From the IMG/VR virus record IMGVR_UViG_3300020171_000126, positions 1-25,422 of that record: 25,422 nucleotides of DNA. One strand, written 5' to 3'. Position 1 is the stretch's first letter. The number at the start of each line of letters is the position of its first letter. Shown piece by piece: positions 2,900-24,817 of the stretch. The stretch is from a virus. The translations under genes and the position numbers were made by a program. The notes beneath the pieces were generated by a model that ran no database searches, was not told the DNA's origin, and worked only from the letters and a program-made list of their open reading frames with translations.

Positions 2900-5800
2900 T
2901 TACCTCATTCTTTCTGTTTTACTTGGTCTGAATGACCGTTTTAAGTTTGATTTAATAGACCTCGGTGTTATTAATGGAATCCTGTTTGCAATTCCTTTAC
3001 TTTGTACTCGTTCGTTATATTCTTGAATTGCTAATAGAATATCAGCATATTTATCCTTGGTTCTTTCATGGGTTGGTTGAAGGTAGAATTTTTTCAATTG
3101 AGCGTATAATTCCTGTCTCTTATCCGAGTATTTATAATTAATCTGTTTTTCTTTCCATTGCTTTTCACGAATCCCGGCCATACGAGCCGGGTTAAATGAT
3201 AGCGCCCTGTAAAACGCATCAAGTTCATTCGCCCTTAATTGCTCATTCCCATAGAATACAGGCACGTTTGAACCTGTTGTAACGCCTTCTGTGCTTTCCC
3301 TAATTGCTTTCAATGGCGCTCCCATTGATAAAGGCAAAATCTTCTCAAAGCCCTTGCTTATATCCCCCTGGATAAGATTTTTCCCACCGACAAAGATATC
3401 AGACATAACACTCCCAGGCGCTCCAAAAACATCACTTAAATTTGTTGGTATATCGCCTATTCCGATAGCGAGTGACCCTTTAATAGAAAAACCGTACCCG
3501 CCAAGCCCAGCTACACCATAACGAGCGTATTGACTCATGGTTTCGCCATGTTTGTTTTCTAACCATGAATACAATTCTTCTTCCGGGTCATCCATTCCGG
3601 CAGCTTTCAACATTGCCGCAATAACCGGAGTGAGAACAGAAGAACCGACTCCCGCTATCACGGCAGGGGATAACGCCATATATAATGCAGCCTTTGCCTG
3701 TCTTTTATTATAACCAAGATCCCACATAGTCTGAAGATAGTTGTGAGAAAACTTTCTAAATACATAATAAGCCCTTGCAATCTGAGCGCCTAAATCCTTA
3801 CCCCTTGCGAAATATGGAAGTGTGGCTTTTCCATAAACTCCATGCCCCCTGTCTGACACTTTTTTTGAAAGCTTCATGGCGACTTTATGGTCTTCTTCCG
3901 TCCATTTGCCCTTATGCATATCTTTAATAGCTTTATATGTTCCGGCTATTGTAGCCACACGGTTTAACTGTTCCGTAACTCCAAACATTTTCATAGACCA
4001 TTCTGCGAAGTCACTATATCCACGCCCAAACTTAGACTGAAGAACAGAAAGAGCCTCCTTGTTATATTGTGCAGTATGCCAGCCCTTATCTTCGATTTCC
4101 TGAAAGACTCGAAGCATGTCAGGGCTTAAAGTTTCTTTTTTTCCGAACTTATATTTGCCATAAAGAGCAGACCCAATACCGATATATCGCATTGTTTTAT
4201 GAAGTGGTATACCGGCGTATCCGTTCATTGTGGCTGGTACACTCGTCACCAAGGCAGTTAAATTGACAAGCGGTGCAGACACCCTGAATCCAAGATATTT
4301 AATAACCGCAAGCCCACGAATGGAACCCATAATCCTATCAATACGCTCCTCGTTTCTAAGCATGTCTTCCATGTAAACCCTTGCTTCCCTGAATGCGTTT
4401 TCCTGTTTTTCAGGGTCAAGTCTGCGTTCTTTTACAAGGTCAAGGTATTCACGATAGTAAGACTCTCTTAGTTCGGCCAATTCTTTACGCTTTGCGTCCT
4501 GCTCGGTTTTTGTTTTTTTACCGGCAAGCTCTTTGATTTGCTGTTGGAATTTTTTAATCTTTAATTCATTCTCATGCCCGTCTTTGAAATTATCCCAAGA
4601 TATATCGGTTCCGGTAACGACCTGAGCCATTTCTATTGCCATTTGTTTTTTTGCAATACCGGCAGCTAAGCCTCTTGCGTATTTTACGGAGTTGATTAAT
4701 GGATCTTCCTCGTATCCCATCCAAACGTCCTTACCGACCTTTTCATCACGCTTAATCATGGACGATCTAAAACCACGGCCACGAATAATATTGGCTACCT
4801 GATTTGCTAATTGTGTTGCAAACAGAAGGTCTGTATCGGGCGTAATCCCTGCGGTTTCAAAAATCTTATCAGTGAGTTTTTCCTCTATGTCGGCCTGTGC
4901 GTTCTTGAGTTCCCATTCAAGCCTGAACTCTCTGCCCTTTAATCCTCTCGGATGGGATTTGAATCCTAACGCTTCAAACACCTGAGTGTATTCAAGTTTC
5001 GGTCTGTCAGCCACGGCTATAAAAGATTTAGAACCGTCAGCGAAGTCTCTCCATTCTGTCTTAATACCGATTTCTTTTAGTTCTTTAATGCCCTCGGAAG
5101 AACCGATTTTGCTTAAAGCCTGATTAATTAAAGCCTGCGTACCTATCGTATTACCGGCAATCTCGAACACATCTTCGGGCATTTTACCGGATACGTCTTT
5201 TTTAACACTGTATCCCTGTTTTCTGAGTGCATTCTCTCGGACTGAAAGTACGGCTTTGGAGTCAGAAAACTCCATGATCGGGTTAGTGCCTTCCTTGGTT
5301 GCGATAAGTTTGAACTTACCCGGGGGTCTTAACCGTGGGGCATAAAATCCTTTCATTTCTCCCATCTTGGCAAGGGCCGCTTTCAAATCTATTTTAACGC
5401 TCTCACCGTCCATTCTGACAGCGATTTCAGGCAAAGGCATACCTAAATCCTCATACTTCTGTATAAGATCTTCCATGTCCTGCTGAAGCAACTCAAGACC
5501 GTTATCCATGATCTGACGATATGCCAACCAAGCATCAGCGCCTTGCTCTGTGAATACACCCTGTTTAATCATGTCGGACGCTGTCATAGCCGTAGTGTAA
5601 TCCCAAGCGTCACGCTCTGTTTTGAACCGTGCAATAGGTTGAGCATCCTTGCTTCGCTTGGCTTTATACACTGAATATATATCACCACCGGAAGGAGGGT
5701 TGACTACATCATATGGTAATCTTGTCTTGTTCCGGTCGGATTTCGTTATGAAGCCCTGGACTTCCTGGAATTGAGACTTGTCCTGCTTTTTAAGGATTCG

Positions 5801-8800
5801 TAATTTATGAACGTAATCTTCACCGCTTTCAGACTGTGTAATTCGGTTAAAGGTATGATGGTATGCGTCAGGACGTTTTAAAGCTGTCTCATAAAGTCTT
5901 TTAAGAGTCGGTATTTTCCAAAATTCAGGGGTTCGGAAGATCTTACCAAGCAAGGTTGTGTCTTTCTTTCCCTCGTATCCTTTGTTGATATTCTTAACTA
6001 TATCAACCATATCACCAAGAAAGCCATTAAAGTGTTTTTCTTCTTCCTTAATTTTTTTAACAACTTCGGCAGGCGTTTCTTTTTTTGTTTCATACCGTTC
6101 CAGAAACTTGTCTGCGAAATCGGAATGCTTTGTCGAATACAACGGCATCCCTTCTTGAGCCGTTTTACTCCCTTCCTGATTAAACACTTTGCCCGATTCA
6201 ACGCCCTTAATGACGTTTCTTGAGGTCCTTGCAATAAGGCTTACCAGACCATCAATAAAGTCTGCAATCTTCTGTAGCGTCCTACCAAGGGCCGTGTGTC
6301 GATATTTTGCCCTATTCTCAAGTTCCTGCGCTATATAAGACGCTCTTGCTTCCTGCGGTGACAAACCCTTAAATTTATCAAATCGCCTGACACGCCTGTC
6401 TAAAATCGTTAAATCCTTATTGGTTAGAAGCCCGGTATCCTCAAGCCAATGCCCGAACATTTCATGCGCTACCGTCCATTTATCGCCAACGTCTGATATT
6501 TTGACAACATTGCCCTGATACGACCCGGCAATGATTTCACCGCTTTCCTGTTCTTTCTGATACCCGATATTAAACGCTTCCTTGTTCGGTTCAATCGTGT
6601 CTGTAAACTCAACGGTTAATGCATGACCGTTCTTGGTTCGTACCCATACGTTTCCGTTTTCTGACGTGCCTACTGATACGCCATGAGACTTAACAGCACC
6701 GGAAAGCAGGGATTGAATGTCTTTGACGAGGTTGGTTTTGGCAGACAAGGGCGAGGTTTTGGTTGAATACTGTGTCTCGAATTTTCTTGAATTGAATCTT
6801 TCCGATAATGGGATTATCTTACCCATTGAACTTTTAGTTACAACATCAACTAACTTTCTATTATTCTTGGTATTTTTATATGCGTATTCCTTCCCGTCAT
6901 CATATCCAAATTCGTTAATTGAGTTTGTATCCCACCAGACATCGGAAATATTAACTCGTTCCGCAATAACCCTGTATCCTTCTGGAATACCAAGACCTTC
7001 ACTCTTTGCGTACGACCTTGACGGTGAAATCCAATCACCATTCCTGAATTTAGAATCCTTTATATTTTTAGGAACTGCCCGATACATCCATATTTTTGTA
7101 GGCCTTGCAACTCCATCAGCTATTCTTTTTTTCTCTCTTTCTATCGCTGATTTTATTTTATTAAAAGACGAGTATTCGTCATTGTCAGCTTGATAATATT
7201 GTGGCTCTGTCCAATAATCATTGGGAACGGTATCTGAATCCATAAGTTCGGAAAGATTAATATTTTCTCTATCAGGTGCTTGGTGCATCATCCGGTAATC
7301 TTCACCGGAAATATACCCGGCTTTCCTTGCGGCATCGTCTACCATTTTTTGTGCTGATTCCATATCGCCTGATTCTACGGCCTTGAGATATTCAGCATCT
7401 TTTGTTTTGTCTATTTTCTTTACCGCATACTGTTCTTTCTTCCCCTCGGCTTTGGATGGTTCGGCCTGATTACTTCGTTTTATTTCATTAATAACTTCTT
7501 CTGATGCACCATTAGATAACAGCCAATTATCAAGATAGTTAAGCGGTATATTAGCGAACTTTTTATCAGGATTTTTTTCCTCGGTATTTAACTTCTTCTT
7601 AGCGTTTTCAATTCGGTCTTTTATACTCTGAATATCTTCCGGTTTGAATTTCTTTATATCTCCAACAAGTTCCTGAATCTTTTTATCACGCCCTATATAA
7701 TTGATTTGGTCGGTGCTTTTAAACCTAAATGAAGGAACGGTCTTCACTGTTGGGAAATTCTTACTGACTTGCTGCTTAAAAGCCACAAGGGTATTGCCAT
7801 CAATTTCAAATTCTCCATCGCCAGGAACTTCAAAGGTGTAATGTCTGCTTTTGTCCCATCTTTTTACAATTTTATAAAATTCTTCAACGGCTCCTTTTTC
7901 GAGTTCATTATCTTTTTCATGTTGTTCAATCGCCTTATCAATCTCTGCCAGCAAGTAAGCCTTTTGCTCTTTCGGTGACAGAGCATCGGCTTCTTTCTTC
8001 GGCATATCAACACTGACGGTTTTTTCTTTGTCGCCGGTGATTTCTGCCTTTTCCTTCACTTCCGCTTTCTGCTTTCCAGGTTCGGTGGTTGGCGATTTCT
8101 GAGATTCCTGATATTTTATCTGCTCGGTTTTAAAATATTGTTTAGACTCCGGTGCTGATTTGAATATTTTGCCTGGGAATACCTCGTTACGTGTTCCGGT
8201 AAAGAATAACTTAAATTTGCCATCAGCTTGCTTTTTTGCCGTTGTCCGGCTTACCGACATATTTTGTGCGCCGACAAATGGTGAATCAACTTGCTTCTCA
8301 GGCAAGGATTCCTTGACGGGGGGAGGGGGAAGCGCCTTAATATTAGTTATCTTTGATAAATTTATTGGTTTAATATTTCGATTTTTCGCTATTGCGTTAA
8401 ATATTGCCTCTGTTTTTCGCAATGCCTCTTTGTCCCATTCCGTTGTGATCAAGTCGTCATTATAGGCTCTTCCTTCCAGCTTGAGATTCTCTACTGTACC
8501 ACCTATTCTAAATTCTGAATGGTCGCCACCCTCTGAAAAATGATTATATAATTTACTCAGGGTTGACGGTAAACTCTTAGTGATATTTTTCAACGTGTCT
8601 GCGGCAAAGTAAACAGAGTCATCTTGACCTTCTTTAATATTAATAGCCGCCAAAGCCTTAGATGCTTCTGTTTCGGACAATCCAGTATCTTTTTTAACCT
8701 GAGAAACGAAATCAGACAAATCGGTTTTATCTATTACATCACGCTTATCATAAAGGTTCTGAATGTGTGACAGTTCTTCTTTAGTTAAAGGCGTATTAAT

Positions 8801-10399
8801 TTTTTCATTCTTTTGAGCATAAACAGGTATTTCAATATCCTTACCATACTTACCATAAAGTTCGGTTTCGTAATCATCAATGGCGGCTTGCGCCCCTTCG
8901 CTCGTAACGCTCTCACCCTTCGCAGGTTCAACGATCTCAGGCTTGGCTATGGTAGGCTCTGCCTGTTCCGCTTTAACGCCCTCAATAACTTCAGGTATAA
9001 CTCCGGTATCGGCTTCCGCTGCTTTAACCGCTTGTGTATCTTCAGTAATAATCTCGTCAGAAGTTGCTTTCTCATTTTCAACCTCCGTTAAAGAAGGGCT
9101 TGGAATACTCATACCGTCTTTTTTGGCTAGGGGTGCGATATTTTCATCCAAGCCTAAATCTTGTGTTTTATTAACTTTCTGTATTTCTTGGTTAATCTCC
9201 TCAATCGCTTCAGGTTCATTCGCCCTTCTGATTTCTTCCTGTAATGCAACAGGGTCATCAAGTTTAGCTGATTGATGGTCTATGATAATCTTGTTAATAT
9301 CATCAGTTGCACCGAGGGCAGAAACCTTCGGATGGGAGGCAACGGATAAAGCATCATCGACCGTCATTTTTCCTGATTGAAGCCCGGCTGTTACGTCTTT
9401 AATAATATTATCTTTTGTAAACCCGATTGTCTGCTCACTGGCTTCGTTAATGCCTGCCTGCAATTCATCATCTGAAACACCCGCTTCCTTGGCCTTCTGA
9501 TAGCCCTCACTGAGCTTATTGTTGGCAGTGATAGCACCCATAGGCCCACCCATCCCAAACCCTCCTATGAAGCCTTCAATGACACCCTCGGCTAAATTCC
9601 TCGAATCGTCATAACCCATTTTGGCTATAATGTTCTGCCAAACGGACTGAGTGGCTTCCTGTGCGCCTTCCTCAAATGCGCCTTTTATACCACCGGCAAT
9701 TCGACCACCCTTAAACGCAAACATTCTCCCAAGAGGTACAGATTCAAGAATGGCCGTACCAATGCCTGAAACCCCACCGTGTAATGTGGCCTCGCTTACC
9801 GTACTTCCGGCTTCTCTGGACTGTTCGTAATCTCCGGCTGCTTCTGGAGCAGCTATGGAAGAACCGCCAAATATAGCTGCCGCTTTCGGGCCAAGTCCTA
9901 AAACTTTCATACCAAATCCGGTTGCGCCCATACCCAATGCCATAGACGGAGCAGCTTCACCTACAATTCCAACGCCTCGTTTTAATGATGGATTTTCTAT
10001 AAAAGAACCACCAAATGTTTTAGGATGCTGTGCTTCCCAACCTTCCTGAGCTTCCTTTTTCCAAAAGTCGGAAACCATCTTACCCTGTTCGGCAAGACCT
10101 TCCGACCCTGCAACCTCACCAGCCCAACGCATACCGGAACCAACACTGCCTGCTAAACCCTCAGCACCCCTCGCTACACCTTGAGCGAATGTTTTTGTAT
10201 ATCCTGGTTCAGGACCGGGATCTTCTGGAATGTTTAAAAACCCAGCAAGCGCGGCATCTTTATCATCGTCAGATAAATTTTTATATTCCTTCGTATCGCC
10301 AAAATTAGAATGAAACCATCCTGCCTTGGCATACGATTTGTCCGTATCCGGAAGGTTTTTGTATTCCTCAGAAGATGCTATTTCGTTCCAATCTTGCAC
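2900..10399 (-). CDS. Giant polyvalent virion protein with ADP-ribosyltransferase-like and metallopeptidase-like regions (2499 aa)
   Basis: This single open frame of 2499 codons starts at GTG (10399), with AGGT nine bases upstream. Residues ~10-55 hold two copies of a YKNL-D-DK-A-AG motif. Residues ~136-185 are Gly/Ala-rich and hydrophobic. Residues ~400-560 are an acidic, Glu/Ala-rich linker. A segment near 1000-1025 (AVESGDMESAQKMVDDAA) is the usual lead-in to ART domains of phage polyvalent proteins. The ART-like set follows: YRA (R1107), WISPSRS (1123-1129), and SDVWWDTNSINEFGYDDG with E1163. HEMFGH at 1312-1317 is an HEXXGH zincin-like motif, with E1359 or E1361 as possible third ligand. 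Residues ~1940-2020 are charged coiled coil. Hydrophobic stretches near 2030-2060 and 2235-2265 precede a basic C-terminus, in the style of large polyvalent-associated domains. By family knowledge such proteins are packaged and injected with DNA to modify host targets; ejection and enzyme activity are inferred. Confidence 0.85.
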   Translation of the reverse strand: MQDWNEIASSEEYKNLPDTDKSYAKAGWFHSNFGDTKEYKNLSDDDKDAALAGFLNIPEDPGPEPGYTKTFAQGVARGAEGLAGSVGSGMRWAGEVAGSEGLAEQGKMVSDFWKKEAQEGWEAQHPKTFGGSFIENPSLKRGVGIVGEAAPSMALGMGATGFGMKVLGLGPKAAAIFGGSSIAAPEAAGDYEQSREAGSTVSEATLHGGVSGIGTAILESVPLGRMFAFKGGRIAGGIKGAFEEGAQEATQSVWQNIIAKMGYDDSRNLAEGVIEGFIGGFGMGGPMGAITANNKLSEGYQKAKEAGVSDDELQAGINEASEQTIGFTKDNIIKDVTAGLQSGKMTVDDALSVASHPKVSALGATDDINKIIIDHQSAKLDDPVALQEEIRRANEPEAIEEINQEIQKVNKTQDLGLDENIAPLAKKDGMSIPSPSLTEVENEKATSDEIITEDTQAVKAAEADTGVIPEVIEGVKAEQAEPTIAKPEIVEPAKGESVTSEGAQAAIDDYETELYGKYGKDIEIPVYAQKNEKINTPLTKEELSHIQNLYDKRDVIDKTDLSDFVSQVKKDTGLSETEASKALAAINIKEGQDDSVYFAADTLKNITKSLPSTLSKLYNHFSEGGDHSEFRIGGTVENLKLEGRAYNDDLITTEWDKEALRKTEAIFNAIAKNRNIKPINLSKITNIKALPPPPVKESLPEKQVDSPFVGAQNMSVSRTTAKKQADGKFKLFFTGTRNEVFPGKIFKSAPESKQYFKTEQIKYQESQKSPTTEPGKQKAEVKEKAEITGDKEKTVSVDMPKKEADALSPKEQKAYLLAEIDKAIEQHEKDNELEKGAVEEFYKIVKRWDKSRHYTFEVPGDGEFEIDGNTLVAFKQQVSKNFPTVKTVPSFRFKSTDQINYIGRDKKIQELVGDIKKFKPEDIQSIKDRIENAKKKLNTEEKNPDKKFANIPLNYLDNWLLSNGASEEVINEIKRSNQAEPSKAEGKKEQYAVKKIDKTKDAEYLKAVESGDMESAQKMVDDAARKAGYISGEDYRMMHQAPDRENINLSELMDSDTVPNDYWTEPQYYQADNDEYSSFNKIKSAIEREKKRIADGVARPTKIWMYRAVPKNIKDSKFRNGDWISPSRSYAKSEGLGIPEGYRVIAERVNISDVWWDTNSINEFGYDDGKEYAYKNTKNNRKLVDVVTKSSMGKIIPLSERFNSRKFETQYSTKTSPLSAKTNLVKDIQSLLSGAVKSHGVSVGTSENGNVWVRTKNGHALTVEFTDTIEPNKEAFNIGYQKEQESGEIIAGSYQGNVVKISDVGDKWTVAHEMFGHWLEDTGLLTNKDLTILDRRVRRFDKFKGLSPQEARASYIAQELENRAKYRHTALGRTLQKIADFIDGLVSLIARTSRNVIKGVESGKVFNQEGSKTAQEGMPLYSTKHSDFADKFLERYETKKETPAEVVKKIKEEEKHFNGFLGDMVDIVKNINKGYEGKKDTTLLGKIFRTPEFWKIPTLKRLYETALKRPDAYHHTFNRITQSESGEDYVHKLRILKKQDKSQFQEVQGFITKSDRNKTRLPYDVVNPPSGGDIYSVYKAKRSKDAQPIARFKTERDAWDYTTAMTASDMIKQGVFTEQGADAWLAYRQIMDNGLELLQQDMEDLIQKYEDLGMPLPEIAVRMDGESVKIDLKAALAKMGEMKGFYAPRLRPPGKFKLIATKEGTNPIMEFSDSKAVLSVRENALRKQGYSVKKDVSGKMPEDVFEIAGNTIGTQALINQALSKIGSSEGIKELKEIGIKTEWRDFADGSKSFIAVADRPKLEYTQVFEALGFKSHPRGLKGREFRLEWELKNAQADIEEKLTDKIFETAGITPDTDLLFATQLANQVANIIRGRGFRSSMIKRDEKVGKDVWMGYEEDPLINSVKYARGLAAGIAKKQMAIEMAQVVTGTDISWDNFKDGHENELKIKKFQQQIKELAGKKTKTEQDAKRKELAELRESYYREYLDLVKERRLDPEKQENAFREARVYMEDMLRNEERIDRIMGSIRGLAVIKYLGFRVSAPLVNLTALVTSVPATMNGYAGIPLHKTMRYIGIGSALYGKYKFGKKETLSPDMLRVFQEIEDKGWHTAQYNKEALSVLQSKFGRGYSDFAEWSMKMFGVTEQLNRVATIAGTYKAIKDMHKGKWTEEDHKVAMKLSKKVSDRGHGVYGKATLPYFARGKDLGAQIARAYYVFRKFSHNYLQTMWDLGYNKRQAKAALYMALSPAVIAGVGSSVLTPVIAAMLKAAGMDDPEEELYSWLENKHGETMSQYARYGVAGLGGYGFSIKGSLAIGIGDIPTNLSDVFGAPGSVMSDIFVGGKNLIQGDISKGFEKILPLSMGAPLKAIRESTEGVTTGSNVPVFYGNEQLRANELDAFYRALSFNPARMAGIREKQWKEKQINYKYSDKRQELYAQLKKFYLQPTHERTKDKYADILLAIQEYNERVQSKGIANRIPLITPRSIKSNLKRSFRPSKTERMR

Positions 10400-10404
10400 T
10401 TTAA

Positions 10405-11643
10405 TTACCTGTTAATTTTACGGAATGGAATACTACCTTGCATCCGTTTCCCAATTTCCAAATAAGTCTGAAGTTGATTTTCAGTCTTCCCTGTCTGTGT
10501 TTTAACTTCTTTTTTTGGTTTAACTTCCGGCTTAACACCCTCAATCTTATCCATCATTCTTTGATATTTCTCACGCTTTCTTACCTGTTGCATTTTTTGC
10601 TGTGGCGTAAGCTCTACTTCTTGACCAAGACTGGTAATAATAGTTCCCCTTTCGAGAATCTCCTGCGCCTTGTTGTATTGTTTTAACGCATTGCCGAACT
10701 TAGCCTTATCGACATCAGACAGCTTTTCAACATCAACTTTTTTAGCCCTTGCTTCGGCTGTTTTTTCTTTAGCTGAGACTTCTCGCTCTTTAAAACCCTT
10801 GTCAATTTTCTTTTGTTCACCAACCGTTAAAGACTTTCTATCAGTTTTAACAAACCCTTGTTTTTTAACATCCTCGACCGTAACCGGGTTTCCTTCCTTG
10901 TCCGTCAAAAGCCCACCGTTCTTATAGAAAAACCATTCCCCTGAACTTTTATTATCTTCCGGTGATCGTTTAAAAAAGTAACTCCCTTCAATTACATCCT
11001 TGCCGTTTGTATAAACACTTGGATTCAACATTGCCTCTTTATTGTGCGCTCTTGTATTTTCAAGATCGGCTTTAGCTAATACCGGAAACTTTTCCTCATT
11101 GATTTCTTTCGCTTTCGCATAGGCTTGAAACAATGTCATTTCACCAACATCTTTTTTTTCACCTTCCTCGGTCATTGTTAATTTCATTTTGTTGTCTTTG
11201 GTTAATTCAGCGGTATATGGGCCAGGTGCTTCACTGATGGTTTTAACCATTGCTTTAAGAGCTTTATTGTCATCACCTGCTTTCATATGAGATTCAGCAA
11301 CGCCAAGATTTTCCACGTACTTTCTGTAATCAACCTTAGTTCTTTCCATGTCGTTTTTGTCAATGCCTGCTTTAAACTCTTGATTTTGTTTCATACTTTC
11401 AAAATATGCAGCAAGCCCCTTTTGAGCAGACAAAGCATCTGTCTCAGGATTATATTCTTTTTGAGACACTTTTAAATCAAAGTTTTTAGGGTCTAAGGTT
11501 CCGTTGGCAAATTTATTAAAAAATTGCTTTACACCTTCATCTTCGGCTCTCGCGCTCTCCCTTGCGCCGATCTCGCTTACCGCATTAATCCCTTGCGTTA
11601 ATCCCATCCAGTCTCTATATTCCGGTCTACCGTATTGATCCAT
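10405..11643 (-). CDS. Putative internal virion / DNA-ejection protein (412 aa)
   Basis: The ATG at 11643 has a GAGGA SD four bases upstream. The product is almost entirely hydrophilic and helical. An N-terminal DWMGLTQGINAVSEIGARE segment is followed by long Lys/Glu-rich stretches (residues ~270-390, e.g. KKIDKGFKEREVSAKEKTAE), typical of coiled coil. No catalytic motif, signal or membrane span is visible. Its place between small glycine-rich internal proteins and the giant polyvalent protein matches the ejection-protein block of podoviruses such as T7 gp14-gp16 or P22 gp7/gp16/gp20, though sequence similarity to those is not evident. The gene ends five bases before the next start. I infer a role in the internal core or ejectosome. 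Confidence 0.65.
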   Translation of the reverse strand: MDQYGRPEYRDWMGLTQGINAVSEIGARESARAEDEGVKQFFNKFANGTLDPKNFDLKVSQKEYNPETDALSAQKGLAAYFESMKQNQEFKAGIDKNDMERTKVDYRKYVENLGVAESHMKAGDDNKALKAMVKTISEAPGPYTAELTKDNKMKLTMTEEGEKKDVGEMTLFQAYAKAKEINEEKFPVLAKADLENTRAHNKEAMLNPSVYTNGKDVIEGSYFFKRSPEDNKSSGEWFFYKNGGLLTDKEGNPVTVEDVKKQGFVKTDRKSLTVGEQKKIDKGFKEREVSAKEKTAEARAKKVDVEKLSDVDKAKFGNALKQYNKAQEILERGTIITSLGQEVELTPQQKMQQVRKREKYQRMMDKIEGVKPEVKPKKEVKTQTGKTENQLQTYLEIGKRMQGSIPFRKINR

Positions 11644-11652
11644 AATATCCTC

Positions 11653-11907
11653 TTAACTCATTAAATATGCGCCAAGTCCTAGAATTAACCCGCCTATCCC
11701 AAATGTACCTGCGGATGAAGCCATGCCTAATGCATTGGCAGCAGCTATGCCGGTCATCCCACCACCAGCGGCATTCATCATGCCACCGCCAACCGTTTTA
11801 TCAGGAGGAATGATCTTTGTTCTTTTATCCATACTCCCGGTAATACTTGAAGCTTGCCCGGTCATTTGCTGCGCCCTGTCCATAGGGTTTTGAATATTAT
11901 ATAACAT
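11653..11907 (-). CDS. Small Gly/Ala-rich hydrophobic internal virion protein (84 aa)
   Basis: The start overlaps the upstream stop as TAATG, with a GGGAG SD. The N-terminal half is polar (MLYNIQNPMDRAQQ). From residue ~38 it becomes VGGGMMNAAGGGMTGIAAANA and then a hydrophobic helix of about 20 residues (FGIGGLILGLGAYLMS) reaching the C-terminus. Small proteins with this Gly/Ala-rich membrane-active end sit in the ejection block of many short-tailed phages and probably help form the channel through the host envelope. That role is inferred from composition and position. A holin is less likely, because there is one good span only and no lysis neighbours. Confidence 0.62.
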   Translation of the reverse strand: MLYNIQNPMDRAQQMTGQASSITGSMDKRTKIIPPDKTVGGGMMNAAGGGMTGIAAANALGMASSAGTFGIGGLILGLGAYLMS

Positions 11908-13031
11908 TAATATGCTCCCATCATTGCTTCACGTCTGCGCCTGAATGTTTCTTCCTCGGCTGCTGTTCTCGCTCCGGTTCTTGCTCCGGCAAGCGTTTTA
12001 CCATATTGTAAACCCGTCTGACTAAATTCGTTCTTGCCCCTGCCGGAGTTTGGGTTTATGCCGTACTTGGCTAAATTTCTAGCGGTTCTTTGTTCTGCCC
12101 CGGCAAACCCTGCCGCAACATCACCTGAAGCCTGGTTGACTTTCTCATTAACATCTACTCCTTTGTCTACTTCTGCGAAATATTTATCTCGAACAGGTGT
12201 ACGTAATGCTATCCCTGCTTTATCGTATTTATATTTATCGGTTTCGTATCCATATTGCGCCCTCATTGTATCTGCCCAAGGAGCTATAAGCCCTGTGTCA
12301 GCTTCAGCTTTAGTTTTGCCATATGTGTATTGAGCGCCTTCCTGACCCTCCATAAGAGGTCTTAACCTCGCAGCCTTGCCCATTTCTTCATTGGCCGCTT
12401 CATTCTCAGCACCAAGCCTTGACCTCGCGTAAGCGTCACTCATTGCAGCAGTATCAGCGGTTTGTCTTTCAAGTTGATATTTTGATTTAACTGCTGCAAC
12501 TTCATCATCAACAAGGTCTCTTCCTTTTTCAGACCTAAGTGCGGCAAGTTCGGCCTCGGCTTTGGCTTGTCTTGTCTCGTATGGAAGCATTTCCATATTT
12601 GCGCCAATCTGTTTAAGTTCAAGATTTGCATAGCTTACATCGGAGCCGTCTGGATTTTTTAAACCACCAACACTCGATCCTTCCGTGCCGCCTGTATATT
12701 GAATATCAGCCCCAGGTGCGAGACTTACATTAGAAAGATTTCCATCAAGATTGACTTCGTGGGTTTTACCATTAGCGTCTTTCCATCCGCCCGGCGTTCT
12801 TGTCCACAGGTTCCCGCTTTGGTCGTGATACTGTCCTTCTGGTAGATCCCTATGCCCCTTGGATGTATAATTACCAGTATCAGTGCCTTTATCGCCAGGG
12901 GTTTCAAACGACCCTGTTTTATAAAAATTCATAAACTCTTTAGCCCAACCGCTTTGTTCCTCTGCAAGTTTAGCCATTCTTGCGTTATAAGCATAATCCG
13001 GTTCTTGACCGCCGCCGCCGCCGCTTGACAT
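11907..13031 (-). CDS. Putative internal virion protein (374 aa)
   Basis: The ATG at 13031 has an AAGGAG SD that overlaps the end of the upstream GNAT-like gene. It opens MSSGGGGGQEPDYAYN and then AEEQSGWAKEFMNFY. Residues ~45-130 form a Gly/Asp-rich insert with GQYHDQSGNLWTRTPGGWKD. The second half is Ala/Arg/Glu-rich helix (AYARSRLGAENEAANEEMG; GAEQRTARNLAKYGINPNSGRG; final EEETFRRRREAMMGAY). The NLAKYGINPNSGR pattern and this layout are typical of podovirus proteins annotated as internal virion or DNA-transfer proteins located after the nozzle gene. No enzymatic motif is seen. It is translationally coupled to the small hydrophobic gene downstream. Confidence 0.66.
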   Translation of the reverse strand: MSSGGGGGQEPDYAYNARMAKLAEEQSGWAKEFMNFYKTGSFETPGDKGTDTGNYTSKGHRDLPEGQYHDQSGNLWTRTPGGWKDANGKTHEVNLDGNLSNVSLAPGADIQYTGGTEGSSVGGLKNPDGSDVSYANLELKQIGANMEMLPYETRQAKAEAELAALRSEKGRDLVDDEVAAVKSKYQLERQTADTAAMSDAYARSRLGAENEAANEEMGKAARLRPLMEGQEGAQYTYGKTKAEADTGLIAPWADTMRAQYGYETDKYKYDKAGIALRTPVRDKYFAEVDKGVDVNEKVNQASGDVAAGFAGAEQRTARNLAKYGINPNSGRGKNEFSQTGLQYGKTLAGARTGARTAAEEETFRRRREAMMGAY

Positions 13032-13035
13032 AACT

Positions 13036-13545
13036 TTACTCCTTCACTGAATAAAACATCACACCATCAAAGTGTTTCTGTAACGTATCGTTATAAAAAT
13101 ACTTTGGCATTACACATGCTCTCGTAAGTTTAATTTTCTCACAAAATTTTAAAGCAAATTCGTTATCTATCGGAACAACCCCGTACATCATGGAAAACTT
13201 TAATTCATGAAGCTGTCTGTAAATATCTATTGAGGCATCAACCGTTTCCGGCTTTCCCCAAAATTCTGAAAATACGCAAAAATGAAAATCGCAATGATCC
13301 CACCTGATATTATCGCAAAGCCCAAACCCGGCTAATTCATCGTCTACGGTTACAGCAAAAAACAAAGTGTCTAATTCTGTTTTAAGTTTAGATAAAAACA
13401 TTTCTTTCGTATATTTAGAGTCACCATAAAAAATAAGACTTAAAACTCCGTCTTTCCCGGCCCTATCTAAAAGGCTCATGATAAAGCTGTCAGACATTGT
13501 TCTGACACCGTCTATCTCTACATAGTAATGAAGACCGACTTTCAT
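13036..13545 (-). CDS. GNAT-like acetyltransferase-fold protein, comparable to T7 internal virion protein A (gp13)
   Basis: The product has the strand-helix order of a compact GNAT fold: early strand and helix (SFIMSLLDRAGKDG), strand FFAVTVDDELAGFGLCDN (the usual 'is it useful to me' strand with a Gly turn), FHFCVFSEFWG, and a final segment ALKFCEKIKLTRACVMPKYF. The classical Q/RxxGxG/A acetyl-CoA loop is not obvious, so enzyme activity is uncertain. T7 gp13 and relatives, encoded next to tail and internal protein genes in podoviruses, share this fold and are thought to serve in virion assembly rather than catalysis. The ATGA overlap with the 60-aa gene upstream shows co-translation with tail genes, supporting an assembly role. 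The sequence is rich in Cys and Phe compared with neighbours. Confidence 0.6.
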   Translation of the reverse strand: MKVGLHYYVEIDGVRTMSDSFIMSLLDRAGKDGVLSLIFYGDSKYTKEMFLSKLKTELDTLFFAVTVDDELAGFGLCDNIRWDHCDFHFCVFSEFWGKPETVDASIDIYRQLHELKFSMMYGVVPIDNEFALKFCEKIKLTRACVMPKYFYNDTLQKHFDGVMFYSVKE

Positions 13546-13724
13546 ATCGGATTACCGCTATCGTCCAGCCTTTTCCCTGCTGAGTTTATCAGCCCGTATT
13601 CGACAAGGTCTTGCTCGGTTATAATTTTAACCGCATTCTTTTGACGCTCTAAAATTCTCTTTAGGGCCACGAAAAAATTAAATAGTCCGTCTGGTAAAGC
13701 TTTAGGAATATCAGGCAGCTTCAT
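13542..13724 (-). CDS. Small conserved phage protein (60 aa)
   Basis: The start lies inside the end of the nozzle-like gene (14-base overlap) and the stop overlaps the next start as ATGA, so translation is coupled both ways. The sequence begins KLPDIPKALPDGLFNFFVALK, continues with ERQKNAVKIITEQDLVEYGL, and ends in a polar tail. Short proteins with this LP-D-P start, amphipathic helix and 'T-xx-DL-xx-GL' end recur directly after podovirus tail genes. Their function is not established to my knowledge. I infer a tail assembly accessory. Confidence 0.62.
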   Translation of the reverse strand: MKLPDIPKALPDGLFNFFVALKRILERQKNAVKIITEQDLVEYGLINSAGKRLDDSGNPI

Positions 13725-15672
13725 TCAGTTCCCCCGGTGTTGTGGCAAATTCAATCGAAAATGTTGGAATATACCCCGAAAGTTCATATTGAAATTTTCG
13801 GTATTTATATCCTGCCGGGAGCTTCCCAATTCCGCTTTCGGTTATGTCCTTTGTGAATACAGGAGTTGTCGACCCGTCAATATAAATTCTCAGCGTAACC
13901 GTATCGGATATACTAAGCCCTGACTGTGTATAAAGTTTTGTTCCACCTATAGGAATTTCACCAATAGCGTCATCCCCGATTGCTCCTCCAAGTGAAAGAT
14001 CAGCGATCATTGCCGCATTCAACGCCTGAAGTTCAGCGGATATTCCAGATCCGCCAACAACCGTTGAATAAAAATTATCATCCAGGAATATTCTGAAAAC
14101 ACCGAGATTAACATGCCCTCCAAGGTTATATATTTTAGAATCCCAAACATATCGTTTGTAATTATACTGCTCACCAGCCCATTTTTTAATTTTATACACG
14201 TAGTCTGACGAAAGATCGTTCGGATTTTCCCTTTCATAAACAACAATATAAAATTGTGAATCCGAGTAAGACACATACCCCGCATAAGCGATATCGGCAT
14301 TTAGTCTTGTGAAATCGTTTGTTTGAAAATCAAATATAAATGCTGTTCCGGCAGATGGGTTAAACCCAAAATACTTGTCATTAAAAATATGTCCATTAAT
14401 ACCTGCTGGGACAATCTCTGCCCAATCTATAATGGAAACAAACGGACCAGTAACATTTGCAATTCCGTTCTGGTTTAAAAGCATCAACCCTTCATTCGAT
14501 GAAAAGGGAACTCCTCGCTTAGAAACAGTAACACTTCTTTTTGAAACACACGGTTGAAAATCATCCATATCAATAGACATCATTTCTTCTGGCGCGTTAC
14601 CGATTACTAAAAAATGTTTTGCGTCCGTTAGAACTACAGTCATTTCGCCGAGCTTCGCCAGTGCCACAACTGTATATGGAAAACTCATATCCTCATCAGG
14701 CCATGCATGAGGAAGCCAAGGTTCGGAGAAAACAACTTTATTGTCAATAAACCCTGCGAACATTCCATTTTGAACAGCGATAAGACCCGTCAGCCCGGCT
14801 GGAGGAGGAAGATAAGTCTCTGACGAAAAGACCTCACCACTGTCTAAACTCGCCGTGTCTATATCATCAGTAACCGTGTACCATTCCCAATAATCAGTAC
14901 CGGACCCGCCTATCCCGTTCGTAGCATCATCGGGATCACAGGTCGTATTATCGTTAATACATTTATAAAGCAGAGTGTTCCCGCCATCGGTCCATTTATA
15001 ATAATGGTTGTTCATGGCGGTTGTCACTGCGCTAGTAAACGTCTCTATGGTCGGAAGCGTAACAACCTTTACAAATACATACTCTGTGACATCTTCCGAC
15101 CCGGACATTGTTCTATAAAGGTTTAATTTGGTTATCCCTCTTGTTATTTCAGGGGCTTCTATTCTGGTAATCAGCCACGTTGCGCCTGTAGGCTTTGCAG
15201 TCTGAACAGCCGTAATAGGCGAAGAAGATCCTTCCTCTACTCTCGAAGTAAGCCACGCATAAAAATAGCTTCTTTGTTCATCCGTTCCCGTTCCGGCAAC
15301 TGAATTTGTCGCAATCGGTGTATATGTAGGAAAATTTACACCGAGTTTATAATAAGCCGGCGGAACGTCAGTAATATCGTGAACTCTTGGTTCTGCCTTG
15401 CCGGAATAATAAAGTCTTACATATGGATCTGAGGCTATCGGAGAACGGACATAATCAAGGTCTACTGTGTCAGTTAAAAAATCACTATCGTATTCATTTA
15501 AAGACAAAACAGAAGCGTCTATAAGAACTTCTTCTTCAGAAGAACCGTTCCATGCCCGAAGATCGCCACGTGCCATATCGCAATTATAGGCAAGGTTGGC
15601 ATCGTTGGCCTCTAATAGGTTGTCGGTAAGTCTTGGGGTTTCGCCCTTGAATGAATATGTGCCTATCTTCAT
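13711..15672 (-). CDS. Tail nozzle-like / tail tubular protein B-like protein (653 aa)
   Basis: The gene begins by TAATG overlap with the fibre gene upstream. Its N-terminus (GETPRLTDNLLEANDANLAYNCDMARGDLRAWNG) is the hallmark start of nozzle or stabilisation proteins of short-tailed phages: a Pro-Arg, a Leu-rich element, an 'NA-xx-A-NC' turn, then a short strand leading to beta-propeller repeats. The remainder is beta-rich, with AYFYAWLTSRVEEGSSSPIT-like propeller strands, a central KLGEMTVVLTDAKHFLVIGN region, and the C-terminal FQYELSGYIPTFSIEF end. Length matches the family (about 550-800 aa). It would form the distal end of the tail tube through which DNA exits. Sequence similarity to T7 gp12 itself is not claimed. 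Confidence 0.78.
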   Translation of the reverse strand: MKIGTYSFKGETPRLTDNLLEANDANLAYNCDMARGDLRAWNGSSEEEVLIDASVLSLNEYDSDFLTDTVDLDYVRSPIASDPYVRLYYSGKAEPRVHDITDVPPAYYKLGVNFPTYTPIATNSVAGTGTDEQRSYFYAWLTSRVEEGSSSPITAVQTAKPTGATWLITRIEAPEITRGITKLNLYRTMSGSEDVTEYVFVKVVTLPTIETFTSAVTTAMNNHYYKWTDGGNTLLYKCINDNTTCDPDDATNGIGGSGTDYWEWYTVTDDIDTASLDSGEVFSSETYLPPPAGLTGLIAVQNGMFAGFIDNKVVFSEPWLPHAWPDEDMSFPYTVVALAKLGEMTVVLTDAKHFLVIGNAPEEMMSIDMDDFQPCVSKRSVTVSKRGVPFSSNEGLMLLNQNGIANVTGPFVSIIDWAEIVPAGINGHIFNDKYFGFNPSAGTAFIFDFQTNDFTRLNADIAYAGYVSYSDSQFYIVVYERENPNDLSSDYVYKIKKWAGEQYNYKRYVWDSKIYNLGGHVNLGVFRIFLDDNFYSTVVGGSGISAELQALNAAMIADLSLGGAIGDDAIGEIPIGGTKLYTQSGLSISDTVTLRIYIDGSTTPVFTKDITESGIGKLPAGYKYRKFQYELSGYIPTFSIEFATTPGELNEAA

Positions 15673-16643
15673 TAATTTAGCTTTGTCATTGTAAAAAACG
15701 TTGCCTCAGTTGTTCCAGTGATATTGTCTATGTTGTCAACATTCCAAACGGTTACATGCACCGTATCCCCAGCTACAAGTTTAAGCACGCCGGTGGCCTG
15801 AACTATTTCACCATTGGTACTTCCAGAATCGTGTTGATTTTGAATGGCGGTTGTTCCATTTACCTTGATCCTTACAATAAGCGTGTCTGCTGCTGCCGTA
15901 ACATCGAACATCGCACTTGCTGTAGCCAAGTACACTCCGTCTGATTGAACTGTAGCTGTCCATGTGTCTGTGTTAAACCAATTTCCAGTGTCCCAACCGT
16001 TCGCACCGGATTTATCATTAAACCGTAAAGTGCTTTCTCCGCTTATCGCCCACGCAACATTTCGCCACACTCTAAAACTTAGCTGACTTGTCGCGGATAC
16101 TGAAATAAAATCATCGGCATAAACATTTTTAAATCTTTTTACAGAAGCACCAAGATCGACATCAGAATCCTGGTAGGGCACAATCGTACCATCTGTAGTT
16201 TTCCATTGTCCGGCCCCTCCGACCGTCACACCAAGCTCGTTTGCAATGGCACTATATAACCCGGTATCAGGATCGTCTACAAAGCTTATAGAAGGCGCTG
16301 AAGATGCACCAGCGTTAGCCAAAACAGTATGAAGCCCGTCCTCAAACCTACCCAAGGCGCCTCTGGTTAAATTTATCGAACACACAGTAACCGGGCTTGC
16401 CGTATGAGCTATACCGCTTGTACCCTCCTGCGCCCTTACAATCGTGCATGATGTTCCAGTTCTGGCCGTGACCTTGACAATCTCGATATCACCGTCAGAC
16501 TGAACAAGGTGCATCATGTGCCAATCCGTCCCGCCTATGGTCGGGAACCCCGTTGCACTTGTAAGAGTCAATGCAGTTACAGAATTATTTATGTCGGCTG
16601 CAAGCGTAGTTTTTACATTGTTTGCGTAAAGCTGTTTTGCCAT
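15672..16643 (-). CDS. Tail fibre protein with C1q/TNF-like C-terminal head (323 aa)
   Basis: The start overlaps the adaptor gene's stop as TAATG. Residues ~1-90 contain a common fibre base module: VTALTLTSATGFPTIGG, then WHMMHLVQSDGDIEIVKVTA and IVRAQEGTSGIAH. Residues ~120-185 are fibre shaft, with FVDDPDTGLYSAIANELGV and DVDLGASVKRFKNVYADDF, a pattern found in trimeric fibres where a virtual 'image' repeat precedes the head. Residues ~190-323 look like a C1q/TNF-like beta-sandwich, including the end LVAGDTVHVTVWNVDN and ATFFTMTKLN. Such heads often bind host surface ligands. It sits between head-tail adaptor and nozzle genes rather than with the distal fibre cluster, so it may be an appendage fixed to the tail hub. 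Confidence 0.7.
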   Translation of the reverse strand: MAKQLYANNVKTTLAADINNSVTALTLTSATGFPTIGGTDWHMMHLVQSDGDIEIVKVTARTGTSCTIVRAQEGTSGIAHTASPVTVCSINLTRGALGRFEDGLHTVLANAGASSAPSISFVDDPDTGLYSAIANELGVTVGGAGQWKTTDGTIVPYQDSDVDLGASVKRFKNVYADDFISVSATSQLSFRVWRNVAWAISGESTLRFNDKSGANGWDTGNWFNTDTWTATVQSDGVYLATASAMFDVTAAADTLIVRIKVNGTTAIQNQHDSGSTNGEIVQATGVLKLVAGDTVHVTVWNVDNIDNITGTTEATFFTMTKLN

Positions 16644-21842: not shown

Positions 21843-22001
21843 TTATAACTTCTTTAATTTCTTCTTTTTTTCTACTATATAGCCTTCCGCTATCGTTCCG
21901 TTTGAAATATTTATTTCAAAATTAACCCTAACTGTCTCTTTATGAGACAGTATATTTGATAATTCATCAGAAATCAATATAAATAATTCTTGAAGCGTCA
22001 T
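21843..22001 (-). CDS. Small hypothetical protein (52 aa)
   Basis: The gene starts at ATG 22001, overlapping the stop of the FmdB-like gene as ATGA, and ends TAA at 21843. It encodes MTLQELFILISDELSNILSH followed by KETVRVNFEINISNGTIAEG and a very basic tail (YIVEKKKKLKKL). The layout is one amphipathic helix, one beta hairpin and a Lys-rich tail, which could bind nucleic acid. I do not recognise the family. The ATGA coupling, a frame filling the only sizeable gap, and its end 50 bases before the terminator make it a likely real last gene of this transcript. Confidence 0.65.
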   Translation of the reverse strand: MTLQELFILISDELSNILSHKETVRVNFEINISNGTIAEGYIVEKKKKLKKL

Positions 22002-22399: not shown

Positions 22400-22674
22400 T
22401 AATCTACTCTCATTTTCATTAATCTCATCCCGATACTTTGAGTTTCACCATCAGAGCTATCAGATTGAGAAATATTATTAATCTTGGCAATTGCTGTTAA
22501 GTTAACAGTATCACCTACGCTCAAATTTTCAATATCCATACCGAGTTTTTTTATTTCTTCGATTTCAAGGTTTATACCTAAACCCCAAGGATATTCTTCG
22601 TTTGAAGGATTTACGGTTTCAACTTGCTTGCGTTTTTTTTTAGACATCTTCATGTCTATTAATCGTTTAGACAT
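22399..22674 (-). CDS. Small capsid-associated protein, capsid-staple-like (91 aa)
   Basis: The ATG lies inside the end of the portal gene (8-base overlap) with a weak SD, so translation is probably coupled. After a basic start (SKKKRKQVE) comes EEYPWGLGINLEIEEIKKLG, then VGDTVNLTAIAKINNISQSD, and at the end the strand IGMRLMKMRVD. The 'YP-x-GL-x-I-x-L-xx-E-xx-KLG ... vGd ... a-x-A-x-v ... l-x-m-x-v' pattern belongs to a widespread small phage family located near portal and capsid genes. Some databases annotate it as capsid staple protein. I recall that annotation but cannot verify it here. A clamp or staple between capsomers or around the portal is plausible. Confidence 0.62.
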   Translation of the reverse strand: MSKRLIDMKMSKKKRKQVETVNPSNEEYPWGLGINLEIEEIKKLGMDIENLSVGDTVNLTAIAKINNISQSDSSDGETQSIGMRLMKMRVD

Positions 22675-24817
22675 TATTACTCACCAACCCTCTTTCCTGA
22701 TACGGTCCTTGTTTATTACTCTTAACTGAAGAAACAATACTGTTTAGAGTTTTTACCCTTTCGATTCTACGGTTTTCATCGTTCGCCTTCAATTCCTCAA
22801 GTATCTTAGTACGCTCGATCTTTAACTTTTCCTCATCAAATTCAACACCTTTAATCTTAACTTCCCGTTCCAGCCTTTCAGTAACAATCTTTTCCCTGAT
22901 TAATTCAATCTCGGCATCAATCTTTCTCGCGTTCGCCATCTTGACTTCAACCTCCGCACCATCGACCGGGCTTGTCTGAGGTTGTTCAGACTGGCCTTGT
23001 AAACTCTGTATAATCTGATCAAACAACGGAAGCTCACCAGACTTCACGGCTGATTCAATGTCTTTTTCTTCCATTCCTGCTATATCCTGAAAATACTGAA
23101 GCATACCTTCAGGAACACCTAATTCTGTAAGTTTTTTAAATAATTCACCGAACGGGCCCTGTTGCATTCTTTCAAGTATTTTTTTATAATCAGGGAAATC
23201 AATCTTTTCAAGCAGCGCTTCCTGATCTATCGCGCTCATCTTAAATAACTCAATAGATTCTTCTCTTTCCTGAACCTGCGACCTCGGCATCGTAGACCCT
23301 GAAACAACCGTTAGTTTGGCAGGAATAAGAAGAGACTTGCCATTAATTCTTCCAGTGTTTTTCTTCCCGTTTTTTTCGTATGTTATCCAGCGGTCCTCAG
23401 TGTACCAATTTTGACCATGTGAAATATACATCCGGCCGCGCTCTCGGATCATCTTTGAATAATTTCTAATTTTATCCTTAAGCATCCGGGATACATTTTC
23501 AAGTAAAACAGCAAGCGCCTTATACGCAATCACGTTCCTTCCGGCTGAATCGGCCTGATCTAAATCAAACGTACCGGCTATCGTGAAAAATAAATCCTTG
23601 TAAATCGTAAGCGCCTGAAGCATATTAGCGTCAAGTCTCGGAGGCTCAAGCCACTTCAAACCACTTGCGGTAAAGGTCGATGTCGGTCTAATAATTGCCG
23701 GACCACCCAAAAAATGAGTATCAGGAATACCTGAATCTTTAGGATTAACAAATTTTAAAGCAGATCCTTTGTCTTTAACTAAGGTAATCGCTGAAAGTGT
23801 TTTATTAACCTCTATATTTAAATCCTCAAGCTGCTCGTAATCGGCCATACCGAAAGGGCTTGCCGTATCGGTTACACTATAATTCTTTGAAAACGGATAT
23901 TTATCCCAACAATACGTCTTTATCGCGTCTTCTACTGAAAGTTCCGGGTTAATTGACGGGTTATTATCATCAGAAAACACTATCTTCCCACCGCACCCGG
24001 CGATAATCCTTCGGATATTACCGAAATATTTAGCTTCTCCGCCAACTTCCGTATAATCTCTTACCCAACACTCAACCATTAAAACATTCTCGTTATCATC
24101 AGAAGCAACGGCTCCCGAACCGACCAAGTTTTTAATGATCCCCGCAAACGTGGCAACGTATCCTTGATGCTTTTCTCCGAGTGATATCTCAGACCTGGTA
24201 TCTCCAAGCTGCTTTAAATAATCACTGTCAGCCACTATCATGTCTTTAAACTTTGAAAACTGCCGCTTAACTTTACGTACAGACAGAGGAAAAAAATGTA
24301 ATACTGCTTCACACTCCTGGATGTCCCTTTCCTTAACCGGATACCACCCAAAATTAAACATCGAAACCGTTTCTGCGTCTACCTCACCGTATGGAAATTC
24401 CTTATCAATATCGAACGATACCTTTTCAACCACAGTACCGTAAAGCTCACCGTCACTTACCGACTCATAAAAAACATTCTGCTGCTCCTGCTCAGTCCAC
24501 CAATTTTCACAAGTCCTCAGCATGCTATCTAAAGCTTCCGGGTCTGTTTCTCCGGTCTGAACAGCATTGAATGTTGGATTATTATCCGTAAGCATATTAA
24601 CTGTGTTGTGATGCGATTTCCCTAACAGATTCGCCGTTAAAAGCGTATGTTTAGAATTTTTAGGCGATTTCCAATGTTTATTGCGCCGAAGCTCGTAATA
24701 TCTATTCCACGCCTTCGTCCTCCCGGAATTTTCACGGTATTTCAAAATCTCGTCCAAGATTTCAAACACCCTGTACCCGACCTTCGGATCGCCTTCTTTT
24801 GGTATCAATTCATCCAT
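22667..24817 (-). CDS. Portal protein (716 aa)
   Basis: The start overlaps the zinc-protein gene by eight bases with an AGGAAA SD. Length and motifs fit the large portals of short-tailed phages. An N-terminal helix pair contains GRTKAWNRYYELRRNKHW, then NLLGKSHHNTVNMLTDNNPTF. A wing and stem region contains FYESVSDGELYGTVVEK, then EVDAETVSMFNFGWYP. In the centre are MADYEQLEDLNIEVNKTLSA and AGRNVIAYKALAVLLENVSRMLKD, a clip/stem helix pattern. From residue ~625 the protein is a long charged helix (EVKMANARKIDAEIELIREK onward), resembling the coiled-coil barrel at the end of P22-type portals. Twelve copies would form the DNA gate; the terminase gene normally lies just upstream, outside the window. 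Confidence 0.82.
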   Translation of the reverse strand: MDELIPKEGDPKVGYRVFEILDEILKYRENSGRTKAWNRYYELRRNKHWKSPKNSKHTLLTANLLGKSHHNTVNMLTDNNPTFNAVQTGETDPEALDSMLRTCENWWTEQEQQNVFYESVSDGELYGTVVEKVSFDIDKEFPYGEVDAETVSMFNFGWYPVKERDIQECEAVLHFFPLSVRKVKRQFSKFKDMIVADSDYLKQLGDTRSEISLGEKHQGYVATFAGIIKNLVGSGAVASDDNENVLMVECWVRDYTEVGGEAKYFGNIRRIIAGCGGKIVFSDDNNPSINPELSVEDAIKTYCWDKYPFSKNYSVTDTASPFGMADYEQLEDLNIEVNKTLSAITLVKDKGSALKFVNPKDSGIPDTHFLGGPAIIRPTSTFTASGLKWLEPPRLDANMLQALTIYKDLFFTIAGTFDLDQADSAGRNVIAYKALAVLLENVSRMLKDKIRNYSKMIRERGRMYISHGQNWYTEDRWITYEKNGKKNTGRINGKSLLIPAKLTVVSGSTMPRSQVQEREESIELFKMSAIDQEALLEKIDFPDYKKILERMQQGPFGELFKKLTELGVPEGMLQYFQDIAGMEEKDIESAVKSGELPLFDQIIQSLQGQSEQPQTSPVDGAEVEVKMANARKIDAEIELIREKIVTERLEREVKIKGVEFDEEKLKIERTKILEELKANDENRRIERVKTLNSIVSSVKSNKQGPYQERGLVSNNV

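What the first reader, a model, noticed from the sequence alone, without database searches (positions are those of the whole stretch)
2900..10399. 2499-aa packaged polyvalent protein combining ART-like, metallopeptidase-like and membrane regions
One uninterrupted gene, nearly a third of the window, is placed after the ejection-type proteins and carries enzyme-like motifs in the middle of low-complexity and helical segments. In family knowledge, polyvalent proteins of phages and conjugative elements deliver several effector domains into a new host together with DNA. This protein would be such a cargo: a toolkit acting in the first minutes of infection, possibly against defence systems. The exact domain combination may be undescribed.
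Basis: partly seen in the sequence, partly recalled or inferred. Interest (0 to 1): 0.78.

Follow-up and report, generated by a model that had tools for sequence, protein, structure and literature searches.

The report
Cysteine-free phage cargo protein
A short-tailed phage encodes a single 2,499-residue protein that is probably packed in the virus and pushed into the host with the DNA, carrying a protein-cutting module and a probable protein-modifying module on a conserved carrier end; the general design is known, but this module combination is new and the protein's complete lack of cysteine gives a simple sign of ejection.

Summary
In detail: one uninterrupted 2,499-aa ORF occupies 2900-10399, but on the MINUS strand (GTG start). 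In transcription order it follows three ejection-type genes, the place of P22 gp16. It is a modular polyvalent protein. (i) The C-terminal 1,065 residues are a conserved carrier, always at the extreme C-terminus of about 30 viral giants; its last 480 residues pass the NCBIfam PLxRFG cutoff. (ii) Residues 1207-1430 form a zincin-type metallopeptidase module (HEMFGH plus invariant Glu1350; predicted fold fits). (iii) Residues 995-1210 form a module absent from Pfam, with invariant Arg1107, Ser/Thr1125 and Glu1163, resembling an R-S-E ADP-ribosyltransferase; fold search was not significant, so this stays probable, not shown. A published survey says polyvalent ARTs are H-Y-D type. The membrane claim is weak. 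Strongest evidence for ejection: no cysteine in 2,499 residues, nor in its three upstream neighbours. The same holds for the ejected proteins of N4, T7 (one Cys), P22, SP6 and phiKMV, and 60 relatives are about 24-fold depleted. This was published for N4-like virion RNA polymerases; I found no wider statement. Anti-defence function is untested. New variant of a known kind.

The parts
2900..10399 (-). 2,499-aa polyvalent protein, GTG start, no cysteine
9500..10207 (-). residues 65-300: Gly/Ala-rich N-terminal stretch with mildly hydrophobic segments (best 19-residue mean 1.26)
7727..8149 (-). residues 751-891: small module shared with L002, L009, L021, L022
6770..7417 (-). residues 995-1210: ART-like module, invariant R1107, S/T1125, E1163; core 1034-1171 also occurs as a stand-alone 129-aa gene
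   Evidence: phrog_2579 E 1e-19; alignment A7; L012
6110..6781 (-). residues 1207-1430: zincin-type metallopeptidase module
   Evidence: alignment A8; model
6449..6466 (-). HEMFGH (residues 1312-1317), HExxxH form of the zinc motif
2903..6097 (-). residues 1435-2499: conserved C-terminal carrier, mostly helical, always C-terminal in relatives
2936..4375 (-). residues 2009-2488: NCBIfam NF032893 PLxRFG match, 103.5 bits, cutoff 100
3608..3664 (-). residues 2246-2264: the only clear hydrophobic, transmembrane-like segment
10405..11643 (-). 412-aa ejection-type neighbour, no cysteine
11653..11907 (-). 84-aa ejection-type neighbour, no cysteine
11907..13031 (-). 374-aa ejection-type neighbour, no cysteine; weak match to phrog_8003 virion structural protein
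13711..15672 (-). phrog_511 'internal virion protein' family (context)
22667..24817 (-). P22-like portal (context)

Best explanation
It is the third, gp16-position ejection protein of a P22-like short-tailed phage, enlarged into a polyvalent cargo protein. Proposed working: it is packed in the capsid, threaded through portal and tail and across the periplasm at least partly unfolded (hence no cysteine), and refolds inside. The 1,065-aa C-terminal carrier provides the constant packaging/ejection function. The zincin module either cuts the protein to free the modules or cuts a host protein. The ART-like module modifies a host target with NAD+ in the first minutes. Shown: ORF, module boundaries, motif conservation, constant carrier position with swapped cargo in relatives, absence of cysteine. 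Inferred: packaging, ejection, all catalysis and targets.
For: Gene order portal, scaffold, coat, head/tail genes, three ejection-type ORFs, giant (P22 order). C-terminal carrier constant and cargo swapped in about 30 relatives. PLxRFG cutoff passed. Zincin residues invariant and on the expected helices. ART-like invariants. No cysteine in 3,369 residues of the giant and its three neighbours, as in ejected proteins of N4, T7, P22, SP6, phiKMV and in relatives.
Against: No virion proteomics for this phage. ART fold match E 0.2 only; hhalign with T4 ARTs not significant. No structural match for the carrier. Putative scaffold proteins can also be cysteine-free (window 20782-21696; P22 gp8; phiKMV gp31), so cysteine absence is not exclusive to ejected proteins.
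Confidence: 0.72

Rival explanations
1. Ejected but not an enzyme cargo: the whole protein is an ejectosome or tail-extension part (a giant T7 gp16), the zincin module only processes it during assembly, and the ART-like module is a binding or structural domain.
For: T7 gp16 and P22 gp16 at the same place are conduit proteins (PMC8954989). The ART fold is not confirmed. PHROGs and several records label the module 'ParB C-terminal domain'.
Against: Catalytic-type residues R, S/T and E are invariant over diverse hosts; the module also occurs alone as a 129-aa gene with no conduit context; relatives carry plain enzymes at the corresponding place.
Confidence: 0.2
2. Not packaged: a late-made or early enzyme acting in the producing cell, for example on assembly.
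For: Nothing here proves its presence in virions.
Against: Late structural gene order, the cysteine-free block, and 'structural protein' annotation of some relatives. JC1 gp69, a DarB-like giant at an equivalent place, gave 51 unique peptides in CsCl-purified virions (PMC9144972), although its homology to this carrier was not detected.
Confidence: 0.05
3. The absence of cysteine has another cause, such as life inside the capsid or a highly charged helical composition, and says nothing about passage through the periplasm.
For: Putative or known scaffolds are also cysteine-free. Relatives are rich in Lys and Glu (ratios 1.64 and 1.55).
Against: Head-packaged proteins of contractile phages keep cysteine: P1 DarB 9/2,255, T4 Alt 3/682. 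Cysteine depletion (ratio 0.04) is far beyond that of any other residue (next 0.72).
Confidence: 0.3

Closest known systems
Polyvalent proteins of phages and conjugative elements (Iyer et al. 2017, PMC5512222)
   Same: Several unrelated modules in one late phage protein, zincin including HEXXXH forms, swapped enzymes, predicted delivery with DNA.
   Different: ART-like module is of R-S-E type and outside Pfam; Iyer et al. [quoted passage not shown]
PLxRFG / 'DarB-like antirestriction' giants of 60-kb podoviruses (F116, SopranoGao, Pavtok, Skulduggery)
   Same: Homologous C-terminal carrier, gene placed next to lysis or late genes, no or almost no cysteine.
   Different: Those carry mostly helicase, methylase or transglycosylase modules and are larger (1,649-5,000 aa); about 24% identity to the window's carrier.
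N4 virion RNA polymerase (gp50)
   Same: Ejected giant, HExxH domain followed by about 1,100 helical residues (PMC12633501), cysteine-free.
   Different: No RNA polymerase module here; no detectable homology of either C-terminal domain.
P22 gp16 and T7 gp16 ejection proteins
   Same: Same place in the late operon, cysteine-free.
   Different: Four and two times shorter (609 and 1,318 aa); no homology tested or detected by family search.
T4 Alt / ModA / ModB ADP-ribosyltransferases
   Same: R-S-E type residues; Alt is injected with DNA.
   Different: Only one short stretch aligns (YRAVP with LWRGVP), not significant; Alt contains cysteine, 3/682.

Membership tests
Polyvalent protein | Two or more unrelated modules in one polypeptide | tested here: met
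   ART-like, zincin and carrier blocks have separate distributions in relatives
Polyvalent protein | Encoded among late structural genes of a phage or conjugation genes | tested here: met
Polyvalent protein | Known LPD or polyvalent Pfam domain in the protein itself | tested here: not met
   No Pfam match in the window protein; LPD1, LPD5, LPD23, LPD38 and InPase occur in relatives
Polyvalent protein | Delivered into the host with DNA | not testable with these tools
   Only indirect: cysteine exclusion and gene position
PLxRFG domain protein (NF032893) | Score above the curated cutoff of 100 bits | tested here: met
   103.5 bits, residues 2009-2488
Zincin metallopeptidase of polyvalent type | HEXXH or HEXXXH plus downstream Glu, on two successive helices after a small sheet | tested here: met
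   Invariant in 23 sequences; helices 1307-1322 and 1348-1367 in the model
Zincin metallopeptidase of polyvalent type | Significant fold match to a solved zincin | tested here: not met
   No PDB match at E <= 0.001 for the two-module model
ART-PolyVal (PF18760, H-Y-D) | Pfam match and H-Y-D residues | tested here: not met
   No member of A7 matches; residues are R, S/T, E
R-S-E ADP-ribosyltransferase | Invariant R, S/T and E in the ART order | tested here: met
   R1107, S/T1125, E1163
R-S-E ADP-ribosyltransferase | ART fold | tested here: inconclusive
   Best PDB match is an ART, E 0.2; hhalign with T4 ARTs not significant
R-S-E ADP-ribosyltransferase | NAD+-dependent transferase activity | not testable with these tools
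   needs protein
Schitovirus vRNAP-type ejection protein | Homology to the vRNAP C-terminal domain | tested here: not met
   hhalign probability 1%; zincin against N4 C1 probability 5%

The most novel reading that the evidence does not exclude
The module is a new clade of R-S-E ADP-ribosyltransferase delivered inside polyvalent virion proteins, carried on a PLxRFG C-terminal block that is a general ejection vehicle; and near-total cysteine exclusion marks essentially all proteins that short-tailed phages push through the Gram-negative periplasm, so ejected cargo can be recognised from sequence.
Probability: 0.4. Interest if true: 0.75.

Novelty: new variant of a known kind. Interest (0 to 1): 0.52.

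Why it matters
The function of the PLxRFG domain is described as uncharacterised (PMC13028781). Here it is the constant end of giants whose other modules are swapped, which suggests a vehicle that could be tested for carrying foreign cargo, as the N-terminal 30 residues of P1 DarB do (PMC9024508). If the ART reading holds, it adds a second ART class to polyvalent proteins. The cysteine rule turns 'is this protein ejected?' into a quick sequence test with a mechanistic prediction about oxidative passage.

Tried and rejected
Pfam and PDB sequence searches of the whole protein: nothing above cutoff. Plasmids: no match. Relation of the carrier to the N4 vRNAP C-terminal domain: hhalign not significant; Foldseek of the carrier against PDB gave no match at E <= 0.001, and weak MotA-like matches there (E 0.3-1) were not pursued. 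Common N-terminal targeting motif ([WY]xxL..): 11 of 53 giants against about 8-9 expected, rejected. First combined fragment alignment A6 misplaced the zincin rows and was replaced by A9, checked motif by motif. Three calls with out-of-frame coordinates failed. Bcep22 records were not in the collection. Membership in ART-PolyVal: rejected. Several transmembrane regions: only one clear segment.

Full report
OBSERVATION. The window is a 25,422-base linear virus record. On the minus strand one ORF runs from 10399 (GTG) to 2900, 2,499 aa without a stop. The gene lies 5 bases after a 412-aa ORF and follows, in transcription order, a P22-like portal, a putative scaffold, coat (phrog_9953), head-completion-type genes (phrog_399, phrog_2941), a phrog_511 'internal virion protein', and three ORFs of ejection type. 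In P22 the order is portal, scaffold, coat, 4, 10, 26, 14, 7, 20, 16; the giant stands where gp16 stands.

MODULES. No Pfam family matches the protein. PHROGs gives one match, phrog_2579 at 1027-1171 (E 1e-19). NCBIfam gives NF032893, PLxRFG, at 2009-2488, 103.5 bits against a cutoff of 100. Searches of viral contigs and genomes with single modules brought in relatives, most of them giants of 1.5-5.6 thousand residues. Iterated profiles of ten segments against their ORFs found four blocks with separate distributions: a small module 751-891 (4 relatives), ART-like 995-1210 (44 proteins), zincin 1207-1430 (24), and a C-terminal block 1435-2499 (about 30, always at the extreme C-terminus). No relative carries both the ART-like and the zincin module of this protein in the sets examined; short ART fragments in L074 are the only overlap of ART with the carrier. 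Relatives fill the middle with inorganic pyrophosphatase, helicase plus methyltransferase, GNAT, transglycosylase, ddrB-ParB, LPD1, LPD5, LPD38 and ART-PolyVal. This is the polyvalent-protein plan of Iyer et al. (PMC5512222).

ZINCIN. All 23 aligned sequences keep H, E, H and a downstream Glu (E1350); the window protein and L002 have HEMFGH (HExxxH), the others HExxH. In the predicted structure (residues 985-1445, mean pLDDT 81.8) the motif is on helix 1307-1322 and E1350 on helix 1348-1367, preceded by strands and a long N-terminal helix, as described for these zincins. HEXXXH forms were already reported there, so this is not new. There was no significant PDB fold match.

ART-LIKE MODULE. In 28 sequences R1107, G1121, D1122, Y1130 and E1163 are invariant and position 1125 is S or T throughout. 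Predicted order: strand with R (1102-1110), strand ending at S1125, helix 1128-1135, strand 1142-1150, short strands, with E1163 just before strand 1164-1166. That is the layout of R-S-E ADP-ribosyltransferases (general knowledge), not the H-Y-D type reported for polyvalent proteins; Iyer et al. [quoted passage not shown] Against this, Foldseek's best PDB match is an ART only at E 0.2, hhalign with T4 ModA/ModB/Alt aligns one short stretch, and no member hits ART-PolyVal. The module folds as an independent unit: 129-aa mycobacteriophage proteins consist of it alone (a 129-aa BFVD entry matches with TM 0.72 by target length). I put the ART reading at about 0.65.

CARRIER. The C-terminal 1,065 residues align in 29 sequences with about 40 invariant columns and give a compact, mostly helical model (pLDDT 78.5, pTM 0.74) with no significant PDB match. 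54 isolate records carry a similar block, in phages of Pseudomonas, Klebsiella, Erwinia, Serratia, Ochrobactrum, Sinorhizobium, Agrobacterium and Pseudoalteromonas, annotated DarB-like antirestriction, PLxRFG or structural protein (the last few are at weak E-values). N4 vRNAP has the same plan, an HExxH domain then about 1,100 helical residues, but no detectable homology.

CYSTEINE. The protein has no cysteine, and neither have its three upstream neighbours: 3,369 residues with none, while all ORFs other than the giant average 1.1%. At that rate, chance for the giant alone is about 7e-13. The proven or accepted ejected proteins of N4 (0/4,294), T7 (1/2,261), P22 (0/1,309), SP6 (0/2,487) and phiKMV (0/2,416) behave alike, against 0.6-0.8% in other proteins of N4, T7 and P22. 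Sixty viral relatives have 112 cysteines in 201,989 residues (0.055%) against 1.30% in other ORFs of the same loci, about 24-fold; the next most depleted residue is threonine at 0.72. Four isolate giants have 0 in 17,495 (two of them were read without their first residues). Contractile-tail phages differ: P1 DarB 9/2,255, DdrB 2/995, DarA 1/639, T4 Alt 3/682. The absence in N4-like vRNAPs was noted before, with the proposal of passage through the tail and/or the oxidising periplasm (PMC3715699; PMC5795418). My searches found no wider statement. Caveats: scaffold proteins can also lack cysteine; relatives are not independent; the contractile-tail sample is small; ORF calls are mechanical.

CONCLUSION. 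Ejected polyvalent cargo protein: probability about 0.72. Zincin module: well supported by motif and model. ART: probable, unproven. Membrane regions: one candidate segment. Anti-defence role: open.

Noticed in passing
window 2900-13031; L002-L010, L100-L102, L107-L112: Whole ejection blocks of short-tailed phages are nearly cysteine-free, including N4, T7, P22, SP6 and phiKMV; published only for N4-like vRNAPs as far as I found.
   Followed up: partly
L012 2495-2884 (Mycobacterium phage Pumpkin gp129) and about 150 other mycobacteriophage and actinophage records: Stand-alone 129-aa version of the ART-like module, annotated 'ParB C-terminal domain' in some records; probably a misnomer.
   Followed up: partly
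window 13036-13545 minus strand: 169-aa ORF at the T7 gene 13 / JC1 acetyltransferase place, just before the ejection block; looks GNAT-like by eye, no Pfam match; 5 cysteines, so by the rule not ejected.
   Followed up: partly
window 21998-22399 and 24810-25214, minus strand: Two small zinc-ribbon / zinc-finger-like proteins beside the portal gene, both below Pfam cutoffs.
   Followed up: no
window 15672-16643 minus strand: 323-aa protein with a weak C1q-like C-terminus (E 0.006, below cutoff), perhaps a tail or fibre tip.
   Followed up: no
L002 3-3623: 1,203-aa cysteine-free upstream neighbour built of many near-identical repeats of about 40 residues (ELANRKE...ELAAQERMA).
   Followed up: no
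L025, L026, L027: Relatives lie in Desulfobacteraceae/Desulfobacterales metagenome-assembled genomes, a hint at the host group of the window's phage.
   Followed up: no
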